Assembly (NCBI RefSeq): GCF_900107095.1
Contig: NZ_FNOR01000019.1
Span: 32,001 to 96,000, forward strand
Reading direction: 5' to 3'
Length of the DNA stretch: 64,000 nucleotides
Origin: Collimonas sp. OK242
GTDB lineage: Bacteria > Pseudomonadota > Gammaproteobacteria > Burkholderiales > Burkholderiaceae_D
Shown here: positions 11,306 to 17,646 of the stretch, one piece after another
Layout: every line of letters begins with the position of its first letter
How positions within the stretch are numbered: the first letter of the stretch is position 1
Program-made: the position numbers and the translations under genes
Notes under the pieces: generated by a model
The model's input: the letters and a program-made list of their open reading frames with translations, nothing else
Databases searched by the model: none
Told to the model about the DNA's origin: nothing

Positions 11306-12760
11306 ATGTTTGCAGCAGTGGATTTGGGGTCCAACAGTTTCCGTTTGCATATAGGCAAATACAATGGTGATGCGATTCGCGTCATCAAGAGTGCGCGCGA
11401 CCCGATCCGACTGGCTGCCGGCCTGGATAGCAAGGGCTATCTGACCGAACAGGCGATGCAGGTTGCGCTGGATTCCCTGTCGCGCTTCCGCAATATCCTG
11501 GCCGACTATCAATTGGAAGCCGTGCGGGTGGTGGCGACCAACACGCTGCGCGTCGCCAAGAACGCGGCGGAATTCCTGCCGATCGCCGAACAGGTCGTCG
11601 GCTACCCGATCGAAATCATTTCGGGAGAAGAAGAGGGGCGGCTGATTTACATGGGCGTCGCCAGCATGCTGCGTCTGCCCAATGAAAAGCGGCTGGTGCT
11701 GGACATCGGCGGCGGCTCCACCGAGCTGATCCTGGGGCGCGGTCAACAGATCGAGCGGGTCGAGTCGTTCGGCATCGGCACCGTCAATCAAAGCCTGGCT
11801 TTTTTTGCCGATGGCCAGATTACTGCGCAAGCCTACGATGCCGCGGTGCTTTCCGCGCGCAGCCATTTCGAAGACGCGGCGCCGCCGTATCGTCCGCAAA
11901 ACTGGAGCCATGCCTACGGTTCTTCCGGCACTATCCGGGCGATTTCCGAGACCATCGAAAGAAACGGCCTGGGCGATTACCGTCTGTCGTACACCAGCCT
12001 GGAAGCCTTGCGGGCACGTTTCGTCGAGTTCGGCCACGTCAGCCGTATCGATTTGCTGGGCATGAAACCGGAGCGTGCTGCGGTCATGGTTGGCGGCCTG
12101 GCTGTATTGATCGGCCTGATGCAGGAGTTGGGGATAGAAGTGATCCAGCCGATCGAAGCCGGCCTGCGCATGGGCGTGATGTGGGATCTGCAGCTGCGCG
12201 GCACGCGCCTGGACCGGCGCGATCAATCGGTGCACGATTTCTCGCAGCGCTTTCACGTAGACCAATTACGCGCAAGCCGGGTTGCTGAAACGGCGACCTC
12301 CCTGTTTGAAATGCTCAGGCCCAGCAGCGATGGCCTCAGCCAGTATTTGCACTGGAGCGCCTTGCTGCATGAAGTCGGGCTGGTGGTCTCGCAAAGCGGC
12401 TATCACAAGCATGCCGCCTACCTGATCGAAAATGCCGATCTGTCCGGTTTCACCACCCGTGAACAGCGTGCGATGAGCATGTTGATCCTGGGGCAGAAGG
12501 GAAACCTGCGGAAGATCAGCGATGCGCTGCTGGATCCTGATTTTTCCAAGGCGGTGCTGGCTCTGCGCCTGGCGGTGATGTTCCTGCATTCGCGGATCGA
12601 GGTCGATCTGGATGAGTTGCGCTTGAAAATGAAGAGCAAGATCGAGCTCGATATCAAGCGCGACTTGATTGAAGATCATCCAACCGCGAGTTACTGGATG
12701 AGCAAGGAGCAAGACTGGTGGCGCGAGATTGGCGTCGATTTCGCCATTCGCCGGACCTGA
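11306..12760 (+). CDS. ppx: Exopolyphosphatase (Ppx/GppA family)
   Basis: Releases phosphate from the ends of inorganic polyphosphate, or acts on pppGpp in the GppA branch. The ASKHA-fold phosphate loops are AVDLGSNSFRLHIG at the N-terminus and VLDIGGGSTELILG near residue 133, and YGSSGTIRAI lies near 210. The C-terminal half (from about 315) is the all-helical HD-like part. Length 484 aa is typical for Ppx. ATG 11306 follows GATAAAGGTAAGC. The gene stands alone; ppk is not next to it. A possible Pho box lies upstream. Confidence 0.93.
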   Translation: MFAAVDLGSNSFRLHIGKYNGDAIRVIKSARDPIRLAAGLDSKGYLTEQAMQVALDSLSRFRNILADYQLEAVRVVATNTLRVAKNAAEFLPIAEQVVGYPIEIISGEEEGRLIYMGVASMLRLPNEKRLVLDIGGGSTELILGRGQQIERVESFGIGTVNQSLAFFADGQITAQAYDAAVLSARSHFEDAAPPYRPQNWSHAYGSSGTIRAISETIERNGLGDYRLSYTSLEALRARFVEFGHVSRIDLLGMKPERAAVMVGGLAVLIGLMQELGIEVIQPIEAGLRMGVMWDLQLRGTRLDRRDQSVHDFSQRFHVDQLRASRVAETATSLFEMLRPSSDGLSQYLHWSALLHEVGLVVSQSGYHKHAAYLIENADLSGFTTREQRAMSMLILGQKGNLRKISDALLDPDFSKAVLALRLAVMFLHSRIEVDLDELRLKMKSKIELDIKRDLIEDHPTASYWMSKEQDWWREIGVDFAIRRT

Positions 12761-14106: not shown

Positions 14107-14619
14107 ATGGTTACCAGTAAAAATGTAAAAACAGGTGTGGCGCCAGCTGTGAAACGCGCCGTCAAGAAGCCTGCAGCGGCGATCAAGACCGTTGCCAAGG
14201 CCAAGCCGGCAGCGCGTTCCGCCGCCAAACCAGGGCCGAAGGCCGCGCCCGCAATTAAGCCTGCGGCCAAGGCCGTAGTGAAGCCCGCAATGAAACCCTT
14301 GCTCGTCGCCAAGCCGCTCGCAGCGAAACCCGCGCTGCCTGTCAGCAAATCGGCGCCTGGCATCAAATCTTTGCCGGACCTGAAGGCCAAAGTAAAAAAG
14401 GCCAAGCTGGTACGCGATAGCTTCACCATGCCCGCCGATGAATATCAAGTCCTGGGCGACGTCAAAAAGACTTTCTTGAAGGCTGGCCTGGAAGTGAAGA
14501 AGAGTGAACTGTTGCGCGTTGGCGTTGCCTTGATCCGCGAGCTGGATCTGGCAAGACTGAAACTGGCCGTGGCCAGCTTGCCGCCGGTGAAGGCAGGTCG
14601 TCCGAAGAAAGAGAAATAA
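14107..14619 (+). CDS. Histone H1-like Lys/Ala/Pro-rich protein with C-terminal ribbon-helix-helix-like domain
   Basis: 170 aa in two parts. Residues 1-95 are almost only Lys, Ala, Pro and Val in KPAAK-type repeats, like the DNA-condensing tails of eukaryotic H1 and bacterial AlgP/HctB proteins. Residues 96-170 (KLVRDSFTMPADEYQVLGDV...VKKSELLRVGVALI) look like a beta strand followed by two helices, a pattern seen in ribbon-helix-helix DNA-binding domains. A nucleoid-associated role is inferred. ATG 14107 follows ATGGAGAGTTGA; an AT-rich stretch just upstream (TATATTATTTATACG) probably holds its promoter. Confidence 0.8.
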   Translation: MVTSKNVKTGVAPAVKRAVKKPAAAIKTVAKAKPAARSAAKPGPKAAPAIKPAAKAVVKPAMKPLLVAKPLAAKPALPVSKSAPGIKSLPDLKAKVKKAKLVRDSFTMPADEYQVLGDVKKTFLKAGLEVKKSELLRVGVALIRELDLARLKLAVASLPPVKAGRPKKEK

Positions 14620-14647: not shown

Positions 14648-14710
14648 TAAATGGGGTCCGGATTGGTACGACGGCAGGACGCGTCGTCGTACCAATCCGG
14701 ACCCCATTTA
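14648..14710. repeat. Perfect 26-bp inverted repeat (REP/RAYT-like hairpin)
   Basis: The arm at 14648-14673 (starting TAAATGGGGTCCGGATTGG) is matched without error by its reverse complement at 14685-14710, around an 11-nt loop. It begins 29 bp after the H1-like gene. A terminator would rarely have such a long perfect stem and there is no T tract. The AAATGGGGTC terminus resembles the palindromic repeats linked to REP-associated tyrosine transposases in other Proteobacteria; no transposase is present here. Confidence 0.7.
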
Positions 14711-14778
14711 TTTGCTGCCGATTTATCGAAAAACATCGGGATTGAAACGGTGAAAATTGGTTTTTTAACACTGTTGCT

Positions 14779-14840
14779 ATGTCATGGAACCGAAATAAAT
14801 CTGTCATTTTCTTGAAGTAATCGGTGGTTAGGCTTGTCAT
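14779..14840 (+). promoter_or_regulatory. Candidate Pho-box array upstream of the lipid-remodelling operon
   Basis: CCGAAATAAATCTGTCAT (14790-14807) matches the PhoB consensus at 15 of 18 positions. TGTCAT occurs at 14780, 14802 and 14835, that is, 22 and 33 bp apart, multiples of the 11-bp PhoB half-site period. The array ends 25 bp before the olsB-like start. PhoB binding is inferred from known enterobacterial and rhizobial sites. Confidence 0.6.
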
Positions 14841-14864: not shown

Positions 14865-15632
14865 ATGCAACTACTAACGAATCCAGGCGAAGCCAGTCCT
14901 AGTGTTTCCAAGTTGACGGTTAGTCTTGCCAGTACGCCGGAAGAAGTGCGCGAAGTGCAACGCCTGCGCTACAAGGTTTTTATCGAGGCGATGGGCTTGT
15001 CTACGCTAGCCAATGCAGATGGTCTGGACAGCGATGAATTCGATTCTTATTGCGATCACCTGATCGTCCGCGATACCAATACCTTGCGCGTGGTCGGCAC
15101 TTATCGTGTGATGAGTCCGCATGCTGCGCGGCGCATGGGGCGTTATTATTCAGAGCAGGAATTCGATCTCGGCCGGCTCGATAATCTACGCGACAGGATA
15201 GCCGAAGCCGGGCGCGCCTGCATCGATCCCGCCTACCGCAGCGGCAGCGTCATCATGCTGTTGTGGGCAGGCCTGGCGGCGTTCATGCGGCGCGAGCGGT
15301 GCGACTATCTGATGGGGTGCGCCAGCGTCAGTCTGGCCGACGGTGGCCATAACGCCGCGGCTTTGTATCATGGCCTCGATCACAGCAATTTTTCTCCTGC
15401 CGAATACCGCGTCACGCCGCATGTGCCGTTTCCGGTATATGAACGCGAAGCCGGCCACGTGGCGCAGATGCCGCCGCTGTTAAAGGGATATTTGCGCAGC
15501 GGCGCCTGGGTCTGCGGCGACCCGGCCTGGGATCCCGATTTCCATTCCGCCGATTTCTTCCTGCTGCTGCCTTTATCCAAGCTGGACCAGCGCTACGCTC
15601 GCCACTATCTTAAAGAAACGAGGGCGGCATGA
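14865..15632 (+). CDS. OlsB-like N-acyltransferase (lyso-ornithine lipid synthase family)
   Basis: 255 aa GNAT-fold protein of the hemolysin/OlsB type (Acetyltransf_5), which transfers a 3-hydroxyacyl chain from ACP to the alpha-amino group of ornithine. Family signatures are LRYKVFIEAMGLS, FDSYCDHLIVRD, VVGTYRVMSPHAARRMG, YYSEQEFDL, EAGRACIDPAYRSG and a late LLLPLSKLDQRYARHYL. Starts at ATG 14865 behind AGAAAGGACG; an overlapping ATG at 14861 is in another frame. Its last codons overlap the next gene's ATG (15629). OlsA, the second acyltransferase, is not adjacent. FeeM-like N-acyl amino acid synthase is an alternative call. Confidence 0.75.
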   Translation: MQLLTNPGEASPSVSKLTVSLASTPEEVREVQRLRYKVFIEAMGLSTLANADGLDSDEFDSYCDHLIVRDTNTLRVVGTYRVMSPHAARRMGRYYSEQEFDLGRLDNLRDRIAEAGRACIDPAYRSGSVIMLLWAGLAAFMRRERCDYLMGCASVSLADGGHNAAALYHGLDHSNFSPAEYRVTPHVPFPVYEREAGHVAQMPPLLKGYLRSGAWVCGDPAWDPDFHSADFFLLLPLSKLDQRYARHYLKETRAA

Positions 15633-16513
15633 AGCCGGGCGAGCAGTTCCTGGATGCCGCGCTGTTCCATTCTCTGGATGGCGCCGCGTCCGGCAGCGGA
15701 TCCGGTTCGAAGCGCGACCCGATCCGCTTCCGCACTATCTGGATTTCCGACGTTCACCTGGGAACCACGGGCTGCCAGGCTGCTCGCCTGCTGGAGTTTT
15801 TGCGTGCGACCGAATCCGATACCTTATATCTGGTCGGCGATATCATCGACGGCTGGCAATTGAAGCGTCGCTGGTATTGGGACCAGGTGCACAACAACGT
15901 GGTGCAAACGGTGTTGAAAAAGGCGCGCAAGGGGACTGAGGTGATTTTCGTTCCCGGCAATCACGACGAGGCTGTGCGCCAATTCATCGATCTGGACTTC
16001 GGCGGTATCCGGATTCGCGATGAATTGGTGCATACCACCGCGCAAGGCAAGCGCATGCTGGTGCTGCACGGCGATCGTTTCGATGGCGTGATTGCCTGCG
16101 CCAAATGGCTGGCGTATGTGGGCGATGGCTTGTACACCGTGATCCTGAAATTCAACCAATGGTTCAACGGCTGGCGCGCACGTGCCGGTTTGCCCTACTG
16201 GTCGCTATCGCAATACCTGAAACTCAAGGTGAAAAACGCAGTGAATTATATTTCCTCGTTTGAAGACGCATTGGCGGCGGAAGCAAAAAAGAAGGGCCTG
16301 GACGGCGTCATTTGCGGCCATATCCATAAGCCGGAAATTCGCGACATCGACGGCATCAAATATTGTAACGACGGCGACTGGGTGGAAAGCTTGTCGGCGC
16401 TGGTGGAGGAAGCCAGCGGCGAACTGCGCCTGGTGACCTGGCAGGAAATCATGCAACAAAAGAATGCTGTGTCCAGCAACCGGGTCCGTGAGTTATGCGA
16501 ATTGCCATCGTAA
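15629..16513 (+). CDS. PlcP-like metallophosphoesterase (phospholipase C type)
   Basis: Calcineurin-type metallophosphoesterase, 294 aa. Metal ligands are in WISDVHLGTTGCQA, LVGDIIDGW, VPGNHDE, LHGDRFD and CGHIHKPE. It is often labelled UDP-2,3-diacylglucosamine diphosphatase, but the DVHLGT-GCQA segment, YWSLSQYLKLKVKNAVNYI and the position before a glycosyltransferase match the PlcP group, which in Sinorhizobium cuts phospholipid head groups to give diacylglycerol when phosphate is scarce. The N-terminal 30 residues are Gly/Ser-rich and unconserved. It overlaps olsB by 4 bp and the next gene by 19 bp, implying coupled translation. Confidence 0.8.
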   Translation: MKPGEQFLDAALFHSLDGAASGSGSGSKRDPIRFRTIWISDVHLGTTGCQAARLLEFLRATESDTLYLVGDIIDGWQLKRRWYWDQVHNNVVQTVLKKARKGTEVIFVPGNHDEAVRQFIDLDFGGIRIRDELVHTTAQGKRMLVLHGDRFDGVIACAKWLAYVGDGLYTVILKFNQWFNGWRARAGLPYWSLSQYLKLKVKNAVNYISSFEDALAAEAKKKGLDGVICGHIHKPEIRDIDGIKYCNDGDWVESLSALVEEASGELRLVTWQEIMQQKNAVSSNRVRELCELPS

Positions 16514-17553
16514 CTGACGCGGGGCAATCGCAAATAAACGGAGTCGTCAATACTTTACGCGCCACCAGCGCTTGTCTGCGCCAGAACGGCCACGAAGTAT
16601 TGCTGCTCAATCCTGATGATTTTCCAACCTTTGCCTGTCCCACTTATCCGGAAATCCGCCTGGCCCACAAACCTTACGCCAGGATTGCCGCCAGCCTGAA
16701 AGCGTTTGCGCCGGACTGCATCCATATCTCGACCGAAGGGCCAATGGGCTTGGCCGCCAGGCGCTTTTGCCTGCGTCAGGGAATAGGCTTCACCACCGCC
16801 TACCATACCCGTTTTCCCGAATACCTGAGCGCACGTTCGATTTTGCCGAAGGCGCTGACTTATCGCTGGCTACGCTGGTTTCACGGCCCTTCGAAGGCGG
16901 TGATGGTGCCCACTCCGCATGTGCTCAGGGAGTTGGAGCAGCGCGGCTTTCGCCATCTGGTGCTGTGGGGCCGGGGCGTCGATACCGAGCGCTTCAAGCC
17001 GGTGGATGAGGATCATGCCTGTATCGCGCGTCCCCTGTATTTGTATGTCGGCCGGGTCGCGGTGGAAAAGAATATCGAATCTTTCTTGCAAGCCGATCTG
17101 CCAGGCAGCAAGTGGGTGATCGGCGATGGGCCATTACGCGAAGAATTGCAGCAACGCTATCCGGAGGTGCAATTTCTGGGGGCAAAACCGCACCACGAAC
17201 TCACTTCGTACTACAACTGCGCCGATGTCATGGTATTCCCCAGCCATACCGATACCTTCGGCCTGGTCATGGTAGAGGCTATGGCGTGCGGCGTTCCGGT
17301 TGCGGCCTATCCGGTGGCAGGCCCGTTAGATGTTGTGGCGCATGGCCGCTCCGGAATACTGGATGTGGACCTGACTTCGGCTTGCCTGCGCGCCCTGGTC
17401 CTGGATCGGCATGAGGTCCGCAAACATGCGTTGGAGTATTCCTGGGAAATTGCAACCCAGCAGTTCCAGCAGCATTTGTTTCAAATCCACAGCGTGAAAG
17501 CCCGTCCCGCGCATCTGCTGGCGAGAAGATCACGGCCGCTATCCGGTTTGTAG
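16495..17553 (+). CDS. Glycosyltransferase family 4 (Agt-like, probable diacylglycerol glycosyltransferase)
   Basis: GT-B fold retaining glycosyltransferase, 352 aa. The N-terminal acceptor domain starts MRIAIVTDAGQSQINGVVNTL; the C-terminal nucleotide-sugar domain has LYVGRVAVEKNIE, VIGDGPLREELQ and the E-x7-E motif in FGLVMVEAMACGVPVAAYP. Proteins of this type, coded beside plcP, glucosylate diacylglycerol to make phosphorus-free glycolipids. It starts inside the end of the plcP-like gene (19-bp overlap) and a terminator follows. The acceptor is inferred from context; a cell-surface mannosyltransferase role is the main alternative. Confidence 0.8.
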   Translation: MRIAIVTDAGQSQINGVVNTLRATSACLRQNGHEVLLLNPDDFPTFACPTYPEIRLAHKPYARIAASLKAFAPDCIHISTEGPMGLAARRFCLRQGIGFTTAYHTRFPEYLSARSILPKALTYRWLRWFHGPSKAVMVPTPHVLRELEQRGFRHLVLWGRGVDTERFKPVDEDHACIARPLYLYVGRVAVEKNIESFLQADLPGSKWVIGDGPLREELQQRYPEVQFLGAKPHHELTSYYNCADVMVFPSHTDTFGLVMVEAMACGVPVAAYPVAGPLDVVAHGRSGILDVDLTSACLRALVLDRHEVRKHALEYSWEIATQQFQQHLFQIHSVKARPAHLLARRSRPLSGL

Positions 17554-17583
17554 CTCCAGCTAGCTGCACCGGCTTGCCGCCAT

Positions 17584-17612
17584 AAAAAAACCTCGCATTG
17601 CGAGGTTTTTTT
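17584..17612. terminator. Bidirectional terminator between agt-like gene and bamD
   Basis: CCTCGC (17591-17596) and GCGAGG (17600-17605) form a stem flanked by seven A on the left and seven T on the right. It can stop transcription from both convergent genes. Confidence 0.92.
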
Positions 17613-17646
17613 ATGGCCGGGGCGCGACGGCTGTCGCATGCGGCTA

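What the first reader, a model, noticed from the sequence alone, without database searches (positions are those of the whole stretch)
14865..17553. Compact olsB-plcP-agt operon: probable phosphate-starvation lipid remodelling module
Three overlapping genes code for an OlsB-like N-acyltransferase, a PlcP-like metallophosphoesterase and an Agt-like family 4 glycosyltransferase. In rhizobia and marine bacteria PlcP cleaves phospholipid head groups and Agt converts the diacylglycerol to glycolipid, while OlsB makes the phosphorus-free ornithine lipids. Seeing all three as a coupled unit (overlaps of 4 and 19 bp) behind Pho-box-like sites suggests one switch that replaces phospholipids by two kinds of P-free lipid. 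Automatic annotation would call the middle gene an LpxH-like enzyme and miss this.
Basis: partly seen in the sequence, partly recalled or inferred. Interest (0 to 1): 0.75.

Follow-up and report, generated by a model that had tools for sequence, protein, structure and literature searches.

The report
Phosphate-starvation membrane lipid swap operon
Three tightly packed genes in a soil bacterium (Collimonas) look like one switch that, when phosphate runs out, strips phosphate from membrane lipids and replaces them with two phosphate-free kinds; the parts are known, but having both routes in one operon appears to be an undescribed arrangement.

Summary
In a Collimonas genome three overlapping genes encode an OlsB-like N-acyltransferase, a PlcP-type metallophosphoesterase and an Agt-type GT4 glycosyltransferase. 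The middle gene is not LpxH: the genome has a separate LpxH, the window gene scores far below LpxH cut-offs, has GNHD where LpxH has GNRD, and groups with P. aeruginosa and S. meliloti PlcP-type proteins (split 100/100). The third gene is 50.5% identical to what is very probably P. aeruginosa Agt1, published to make monoglucosyl-diacylglycerol. Relatives of the first gene sit in olsB-olsA pairs; a probable OlsA lies elsewhere in the genome. A four-unit, 11-bp-periodic Pho box (14780-14823) precedes the operon; its spacing is kept in 14 of 14 Collimonas regions (own included) and in other genera, but not in Herbaspirillum. In a family sample, 39 of 51 genomes with both OlsB and PlcP carry them within 4 kb, in two main orders. 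In some lineages an MGDG-synthase-family enzyme takes the Agt position, or it is empty. Products and phosphate induction are inferred, not measured. Verdict: new variant of a known kind.

The parts
14780..14823 (+). Predicted PhoB operator: four tandem 11-bp units TGTCATGGAAC / CGAAATAAATC / TGTCATTTTCT / TGAAGTAATCG
   Evidence: Same TGTCA spacing (-85, -63 from olsB) in 14 of 14 Collimonas upstream regions, own included; consensus from 36 distinct sites in relatives; score 58.2 with a matrix that excludes Collimonas, next best place in window 0.7.
14829..14834 (+). Possible -10 element TAGGCT (inferred by eye from comparison with other genera)
   Evidence: Position read; the sigma-70 consensus scan lists no promoter here.
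14865..15632 (+). olsB-like N-acyltransferase gene, 255 aa
   Evidence: PF13444 120.2 bits; best NCBIfam models are two OlsB equivalogs, 158 and 153.6 bits, below their cut-offs of 320 and 350; 54-56% identical to four OlsB genes followed by an OlsA-like gene.
15629..16513 (+). plcP-type metallophosphoesterase gene (phospholipase C), 294 aa
   Evidence: 55.5% to the PA3219-type protein of P. aeruginosa, 46.4% to the S. meliloti one; five motifs with GNHD; tree separates it from LpxH.
16495..17553 (+). agt-type GT4 glycosyltransferase gene (diacylglycerol glycosyltransferase), 352 aa
   Evidence: 50.5% over 325 aa to the gene directly downstream of the P. aeruginosa plcP homologue; GT4 Pfam domains.
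17580..17616 (.). Bidirectional terminator-like palindrome CCATAAAAAAACCTCGC-ATT-GCGAGGTTTTTTTATGG closing the operon
   Evidence: Read directly from the sequence; not listed by the terminator scan.
11306..12760 (+). Neighbouring ppx/gppA exopolyphosphatase gene (context, not part of the operon)
   Evidence: PF02541 225.7 bits; a ppx gene also lies near olsB in several other genera.

Best explanation
The trio is a PhoB-controlled transcription unit for membrane lipid remodelling. When phosphate is scarce, PhoB binds the tandem box and all three genes are made together. PlcP removes the phosphorylated head group from phospholipids and leaves diacylglycerol; the Agt-type enzyme glucosylates the diacylglycerol to a glycolipid, most likely monoglucosyl-diacylglycerol; OlsB makes lyso-ornithine lipid, which a separately encoded OlsA (candidate next to a dihydroorotase-like gene, L005) completes to ornithine lipid. 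The cell thus recovers phosphate and fills the membrane with two phosphorus-free lipids. Shown here: gene identities by homology, phylogeny and motifs; overlapping gene order; conserved operator-like box; conserved linkage. Inferred: PhoB binding, co-transcription, substrates, products, physiology.
For: PlcP: tree with 35 PlcP-type rows against 9 LpxH rows, split 100/100; GNHD versus GNRD; separate LpxH. Agt: 50.5% to the enzyme that follows the P. aeruginosa plcP homologue; Agt1 is reported to use UDP-glucose and make MGDG (PMC8528852, passages). OlsB: family, olsB-olsA pairs in four relatives, only PF13444 match in the genome. OlsA candidate with OlsA models as best hits and homology to OlsA-like genes beside olsB. 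Operator. Linkage: 39 of 51 family genomes with both OlsB and PlcP have them within 4 kb. Neighbours that fit diacylglycerol or phosphate use: dgkA, ppx, ppk1, pstS, MGDG-synthase-family enzyme.
Against: OlsB and OlsA candidate score below curated cut-offs. 17 of 97 sampled family genomes have a single OlsB and no PlcP or Agt at the thresholds used, so OlsB also works apart from this module. Of the 51 genomes with both OlsB and PlcP, 12 have them unlinked (some may be contig breaks). In 18 of 18 Herbaspirillum-labelled loci the olsB promoter does not exceed the shuffled maximum of 6.3 (best 5.8). The own pstS promoters do not score with the olsB-type matrix. The tree program warns of long branches. 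No expression or lipid data.
Confidence: 0.86

Rival explanations
1. The middle gene is an LpxH (UDP-2,3-diacylglucosamine diphosphatase) paralogue working in lipid A synthesis, as automatic annotation suggests.
For: Same superfamily; weak hits to LpxH models (51.4 and 46.3 bits) and to LpxH structures (best E 1.1e-6); 24 of 32 plasmid records with a homologue carry that label.
Against: Below both cut-offs (134, 190.35); genome has a true LpxH over cut-off, 47.4% identical to E. coli LpxH; GNHD instead of GNRD, separate clade.
Confidence: 0.02
2. The glycosyltransferase acts on another acceptor (for example phosphatidylglycerol, lipopolysaccharide or a capsule), so the operon makes ornithine lipid and frees phosphate but no diacylglycerol glycolipid.
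For: GT4 is a large family and the best NCBIfam model is an N-acetylglucosaminyl-phosphatidylglycerol synthase, far below its cut-off (69.1 vs 480 bits). Many relatives keep olsB-plcP without any such gene in the flank (29 of 80 named loci).
Against: 50.5% identity to the Agt1-type enzyme next to plcP; the same position is taken by an MGDG-synthase-family enzyme in four named loci.
Confidence: 0.12
3. The first gene makes a different aminolipid (OlsB homologues can use glutamine or glycine), so the second lipid is not an ornithine lipid.
For: Only 33.3% identical to the S. meliloti OlsB-like protein and below OlsB cut-offs; a review says OlsB homologues make other aminolipids (PMC11631085, passages).
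Against: OlsB models (158, 153.6 bits) outscore OlsF (62.7), exosortase-associated (39.5) and glycine-lipid (22.5) models (no glutamine-lipid model appeared); 47.5% to a Streptomyces protein with an OlsA-like frame behind it, an organisation whose S. coelicolor member is shown by mutation to make ornithine lipid (PMC4686642, passages).
Confidence: 0.13
4. The operon is expressed constitutively or under another regulator, and the TGTCAT repeats are not a PhoB site.
For: Herbaspirillum trio lacks a full box; ornithine lipids of some Burkholderia and Ruegeria are reported not to be tightly phosphate-regulated (PMC11631085, passages).
Against: Four-unit 11-bp repeat conserved in several genera; own pstS promoter has CGTCATAAAGC-TGTCATAAATG; some Undibacterium pstS promoters have TGTCATATTCT-TGTCATATTCG-like repeats.
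Confidence: 0.06

Closest known systems
plcP-agt1 (PA3219-PA3218) of Pseudomonas aeruginosa
   Same: PlcP followed by a GT4 glycosyltransferase; 55.5% and 50.5% identity; TGTCAC half-sites 22 bp apart upstream; low-phosphate glycolipid pathway shown there by mutants and enzymes (PMC8528852, passages).
   Different: No olsB in the unit; the review passages speak of an olsBA operon apart from plcP and agt1 (PMC9804370). Its promoter scores low with the olsB-type matrix (-15.6). Collimonas puts olsB first, with overlapping genes.
plcP neighbourhood types 1-6 of marine bacteria (PMC4796936, passages)
   Same: plcP next to an agt or another glycosyltransferase, with Pho boxes predicted.
   Different: The passages read name btaAB, agt and other glycosyltransferases as partners; olsB does not occur in the main text (0 hits). 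Its supplementary tables were not seen.
olsB-olsA operons (Streptomyces coelicolor SCO0921-SCO0920, PMC4686642, passages; relatives L114, L119-L121)
   Same: OlsB homologue of ornithine lipid synthesis; phosphate-responsive in S. coelicolor.
   Different: In Collimonas olsB is followed by plcP and agt, not by olsA.
LpxH (lipid A synthesis)
   Same: Same phosphoesterase superfamily and database label.
   Different: Separate clade, GNRD motif, separate gene present.

Membership tests
PlcP | Metallophosphoesterase motifs SDxHLG, GDxxDGW, GNHDE, HGDxFD, CGHIH | tested here: met
   these motif strings were written for this test from the sequences, not taken from a paper read here.
PlcP | Clusters with published PlcP proteins and apart from LpxH | tested here: met
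   IQ-TREE split 100/100, with long-branch warnings; the same 35-row group is recovered by FastTree with the own LpxH added (printed support 0.784). That L039 is the published S. meliloti PlcP and L040 is PA3219 is inferred from context and from their 46.6% mutual identity, near the 46% in PMC8528852.
PlcP | Hydrolyses phospholipids to diacylglycerol | not testable with these tools
   Needs an enzyme assay.
LpxH | Passes TIGR01854 or PRK05340 cut-off | tested here: not met
   46.3 of 190.35 and 51.4 of 134 bits.
LpxH | GNRD motif | tested here: not met
   Window has GNHD; 8 of 8 LpxH-type relatives printed and E. coli LpxH have GNRD. That GNRD marks LpxH is recalled, and borne out by these rows.
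Agt | GT4 enzyme homologous to Agt1 and linked to plcP | tested here: met
   50.5% over 325 aa; 19-bp overlap with plcP.
Agt | Glycosylates diacylglycerol | not testable with these tools
   Donor and acceptor unknown.
OlsB | PF13444 N-acyltransferase | tested here: met
   120.2 bits over residues 34-135.
OlsB | Passes a curated OlsB model | tested here: inconclusive
   158 of 320 and 153.6 of 350 bits; by their names the two models are built around Brucella and Rhodobacter types.
OlsBA pathway | OlsA in the same genome | tested here: inconclusive
   L005 protein: best models are OlsA, 123.2 of 300 bits; homologous to OlsA-like genes beside olsB in other bacteria.
OlsB | Uses ornithine | not testable with these tools
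   Needs lipid analysis.
Pho regulon | 11-bp tandem TGTCAT-type Pho box upstream | tested here: met
Pho regulon | PhoB-dependent induction on low phosphate | not testable with these tools
   No expression data.

The most novel reading that the evidence does not exclude
Burkholderiales carry a modular, phosphate-controlled lipid-swap island built on OlsB and PlcP together, in which the diacylglycerol-handling position is interchangeable: a GT4 Agt, an MGDG-synthase-family enzyme, both, a diacylglycerol kinase in series, or nothing. Lineages with the empty position (Undibacterium) would run an ornithine-lipid-only strategy and recycle the diacylglycerol. The OlsB-PlcP coupling exists in two main gene orders, so it may have been assembled more than once.
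Probability: 0.6. Interest if true: 0.6.

Novelty: new variant of a known kind. Interest (0 to 1): 0.52.

Why it matters
In the papers seen, ornithine lipid synthesis and PlcP-Agt glycolipid remodelling are described as separate phosphate-responsive units. A single operon with one conserved operator would tie phospholipid breakdown to both replacement routes, gives a simple testable case of membrane remodelling in soil and freshwater beta-proteobacteria, and shows that genes labelled UDP-2,3-diacylglucosamine diphosphatase can in fact be PlcP. The interchangeable glycosyltransferase position predicts which lipid each lineage makes.

Tried and rejected
LpxH identity of the middle gene: rejected. 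OlsF or PEP-CTERM acyltransferase identity of the first gene: those models score much lower than OlsB. Use of pstS promoters as a positive control for the full four-unit matrix failed: the matrix, trained on olsB promoters, gives L122 -20.9 and L123 -15.3, and all but one (L073, 3.4) of the listed pstS-like upstream stretches of relatives are negative, although two-unit 11-bp repeats can be seen by eye in L122 and some Undibacterium ones; so the matrix describes the olsB-type box, not every Pho box. Of the five plcP-first operons L126-L130 four score negative and L130 2.6; the four Polynucleobacter-type ones score 4.7-26.7; L134 33.7; most other plcP upstreams tested are negative. Sigma-70 and terminator scan: about as many sites as in shuffles. 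Sequence-only PDB search: LpxH structures and four weak others, not informative on PlcP. Structure prediction was not run because it would not separate the open questions (substrate, regulation). The tree lacked the own LpxH (L002) and L145, which fell below the BLAST filter; the own LpxH was added, L145 was not used further.
Full report
Observation. A palindrome at 17580-17616 closes the unit before a convergent gene (the terminator scan does not list it). The window lies in a 4.98 Mb genome whose nearest named relatives for the first protein are Collimonas (99% to Collimonas sp. OK307).

Middle gene. NCBIfam LpxH models match weakly, 51.4 of 134 and 46.3 of 190.35 bits. The same genome has another gene over the LpxH cut-off with 281.8 bits, next to ORFs that look cyclophilin-like by eye, as E. 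coli lpxH is next to ppiB, and 47.4% identical to E. coli LpxH. A maximum-likelihood tree of 44 proteins separates 35 PlcP-type rows, among them the window, the P. aeruginosa and the S. meliloti ones, from 9 LpxH rows at 100/100; the program warns of several long branches and of joins between them. With the own LpxH added, FastTree recovers the same 35-row group (printed support 0.784). In the motif print, 34 of 35 PlcP-type rows have GNHD (L133 lacks it), and 8 of 8 printed LpxH-type rows and E. coli LpxH have GNRD. The P. aeruginosa locus L040 is a plasmid-borne stretch; that it is PA3219-PA3218 I infer from the neighbouring adenylate cyclase gene (PA3217 by recall) and from 46.6% identity to the S. 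meliloti protein, near the 46% given in PMC8528852 (passages).

Third gene. It is 50.5% identical over 325 residues to the glycosyltransferase that follows the P. aeruginosa plcP homologue. PMC8528852 (passages) reports that Agt1 uses UDP-glucose, makes MGDG from diacylglycerol, and that MGDG is not found in the plcP and agt1 mutants. I therefore predict monoglucosyl-diacylglycerol; the donor is untested here.

First gene. It belongs to PF13444 and matches two OlsB equivalog models best but below their cut-offs. It is the only PF13444 match in the genome. Relatives at 54-56% identity in four loci (L114, L119, L120, L121) are followed by an OlsA-like gene. It is 47.5% identical to a Streptomyces protein with an OlsA-like reading frame behind it and 44% to a Methylomagnum one with a lysophospholipid acyltransferase behind it; S. 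coelicolor olsB of that organisation is supported by a mutant and complementation (PMC4686642, passages). Identity to the S. meliloti OlsB-like protein is 33.3%. Of five PF01553 acyltransferases in the genome, the L005 protein has OlsA models as best hits, 123.2 of 300 bits, and is related to the acyltransferase that stands divergently beside plcP in Polynucleobacter and to OlsA-like genes beside olsB elsewhere. So the OlsA step is probably present but not in the operon. The genome also has one dgkA-type gene elsewhere, so diacylglycerol could be recycled as well.

Regulation. Upstream of olsB, TGTCA stands at -85, -63 and -30 in 14 of 14 Collimonas regions, own included; of four regions of other genera in the same call, two have a pair at -83 and -61, one has no site, and one (L022) has none near the gene; its named counterpart Glaciimonas soli L049 has the box at -266. 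Over 86 loci with olsB forward and at least 159 bp upstream, 39 have TGTCA-N17-TGTCA within 200 bp; most of the 39 are Undibacterium or Collimonas, so they are not independent. The 36 distinct sites give tandem 11-bp units, TGTCATaAAAC-cGAcATnnaac-TGTCATntTnt-TGAAGTAaTC. A matrix from the 29 distinct non-Collimonas sites scores the window site 58.2 and nothing else in the window above 0.7. The sites were picked by their two TGTCA cores, so those columns are fixed by construction; the second and fourth units were not. The gapped pattern occurs once in 64 kb (0.05 expected) and twice in the genome against 1 for the reversed control; the second lies within the coding stretch of L007. The own pstS gene L122 has CGTCATAAAGC-TGTCATAAATG upstream, but does not score with the matrix. 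Against: in 18 of 18 Herbaspirillum-labelled loci the best score is 5.8, under the shuffled maximum of 6.3, and a 900-bp scan of eight of them reaches 6.0 at most. PMC7814305 (passages) reports predicted Pho boxes before olsB in 21 of 43 Burkholderia sensu lato genomes with the first matrix and in all 43 with a second, and replacement of PE by ornithine lipids in P. xenovorans on low phosphate (its data not shown).

Linkage. In 97 genomes of the same family (as grouped by the tool), 70 have OlsB, 53 PlcP, 31 the Agt at the thresholds used (1e-50, 1e-50, 1e-60); 51 have both OlsB and PlcP and 29 all three. Arrangements: olsB-plcP-agt in 16 genomes of 6 genera; olsB-plcP in 9, and in 2 more with an Agt elsewhere; plcP-agt-(about 1.1-1.9 kb)-olsB in 8 genomes of 6 genera; plcP and olsB within 4 kb in other orders or orientations in 4; unlinked in 12. 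So 39 of 51 are within 4 kb. Also 17 genomes have a single OlsB alone, 1 has two OlsB alone, 1 has olsB-agt without PlcP, 1 PlcP alone, 1 plcP-agt without OlsB. I read five of the eight plcP-agt-olsB loci: in all five dgkA and sixA fill the gap and ppx follows. Of the 80 named loci (the best 80 of 239), one search shows 29 with olsB-plcP-agt, 4 with olsB-plcP followed by an MGDG-synthase-family enzyme, 29 with olsB-plcP and neither, 4 with plcP-agt-dgkA-olsB (three Polynucleobacter, one unnamed Burkholderiaceae), and 14 without plcP in the flank (one contig, L113, ends inside olsB). In 49 of the 80 at least one of ppx, ppk1, sixA or pstS lies in the fetched flank. The MGDG-synthase assignment rests on PF06925 hits of 81.8 and 86.9 bits for two of these enzymes (L132, L106) and 46-50% identity of the others to L132 (a partial match in L071 is 63% over a short end).

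Novelty. PlcP-Agt units, olsBA operons and phosphate control of both are known. In the passages I read of PMC4796936, PMC8528852, PMC9239053, PMC5082522, PMC9804370, PMC7814305 and PMC11631085 no olsB-plcP operon is described; the first of these holds the word olsB 0 times. Searches gave no paper that, from its listing, reports one; the phrases olsB-plcP and plcP-olsB had 0 occurrences in the 40 listed of 349 papers. Subscription papers, such as a B. cenocepacia phosphorus-stress proteome and a PlcP enzymology paper, were not held, and the supplementary tables of PMC4796936 were not seen, so priority is not settled. I class it as a new variant of a known kind.

What is shown and what is inferred. 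Shown by computation: gene identity at family level, PlcP rather than LpxH, conserved operator-like box, conserved linkage, exchange of the enzyme in the third position. Inferred: PhoB binding, co-transcription, ornithine as substrate, glucosyl-diacylglycerol as product, participation of L005 as OlsA, and the physiological swap.

Noticed in passing
window about 14650-14711: Long near-perfect inverted repeat (arms of over 20 bp) between the lysine/alanine-rich gene and olsB; an 18-base piece of the arm occurs in the genome only here, once per arm.
   Followed up: partly
window 14107-14619: Lysine/alanine-rich, histone-H1-like protein without a Pfam hit at 1e-5; similar-looking ORFs stand before olsB in Undibacterium (L094) and Pseudoduganella (L099) (by eye).
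   Followed up: partly
L070 and L107: Contigs labelled Pseudomonas fluorescens ISL-62 and P. lactucae carry OlsB homologues 80% and 67% identical to Collimonas, followed by ORFs similar to each other (acyl-CoA-dehydrogenase-like by eye) and no plcP in the flank: possible transfer into another context.
   Followed up: partly
L131 (G015): olsB directly followed by the Agt-type gene, with no plcP match in that genome.
   Followed up: partly
L132, L134, L106, L059, L100, L103, L111: MGDG-synthase-family glycosyltransferases near plcP; in L059, L100, L103 and L111 in the place of Agt.
   Followed up: yes
G001: A 1.7 Mb genome placed in the same genus has none of the three genes at the thresholds used; its only match to the PlcP query is weak (E 9.5e-4, 23%).
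   Followed up: no
L040 (NZ_CP137508.1): Three P. aeruginosa plasmid records carry a plcP-agt pair; in the one whose neighbours were read they look like ordinary chromosomal genes.
   Followed up: no
L123 (G000:C7): A second pstS-like gene in the own genome, without an obvious tandem Pho box upstream.
   Followed up: no
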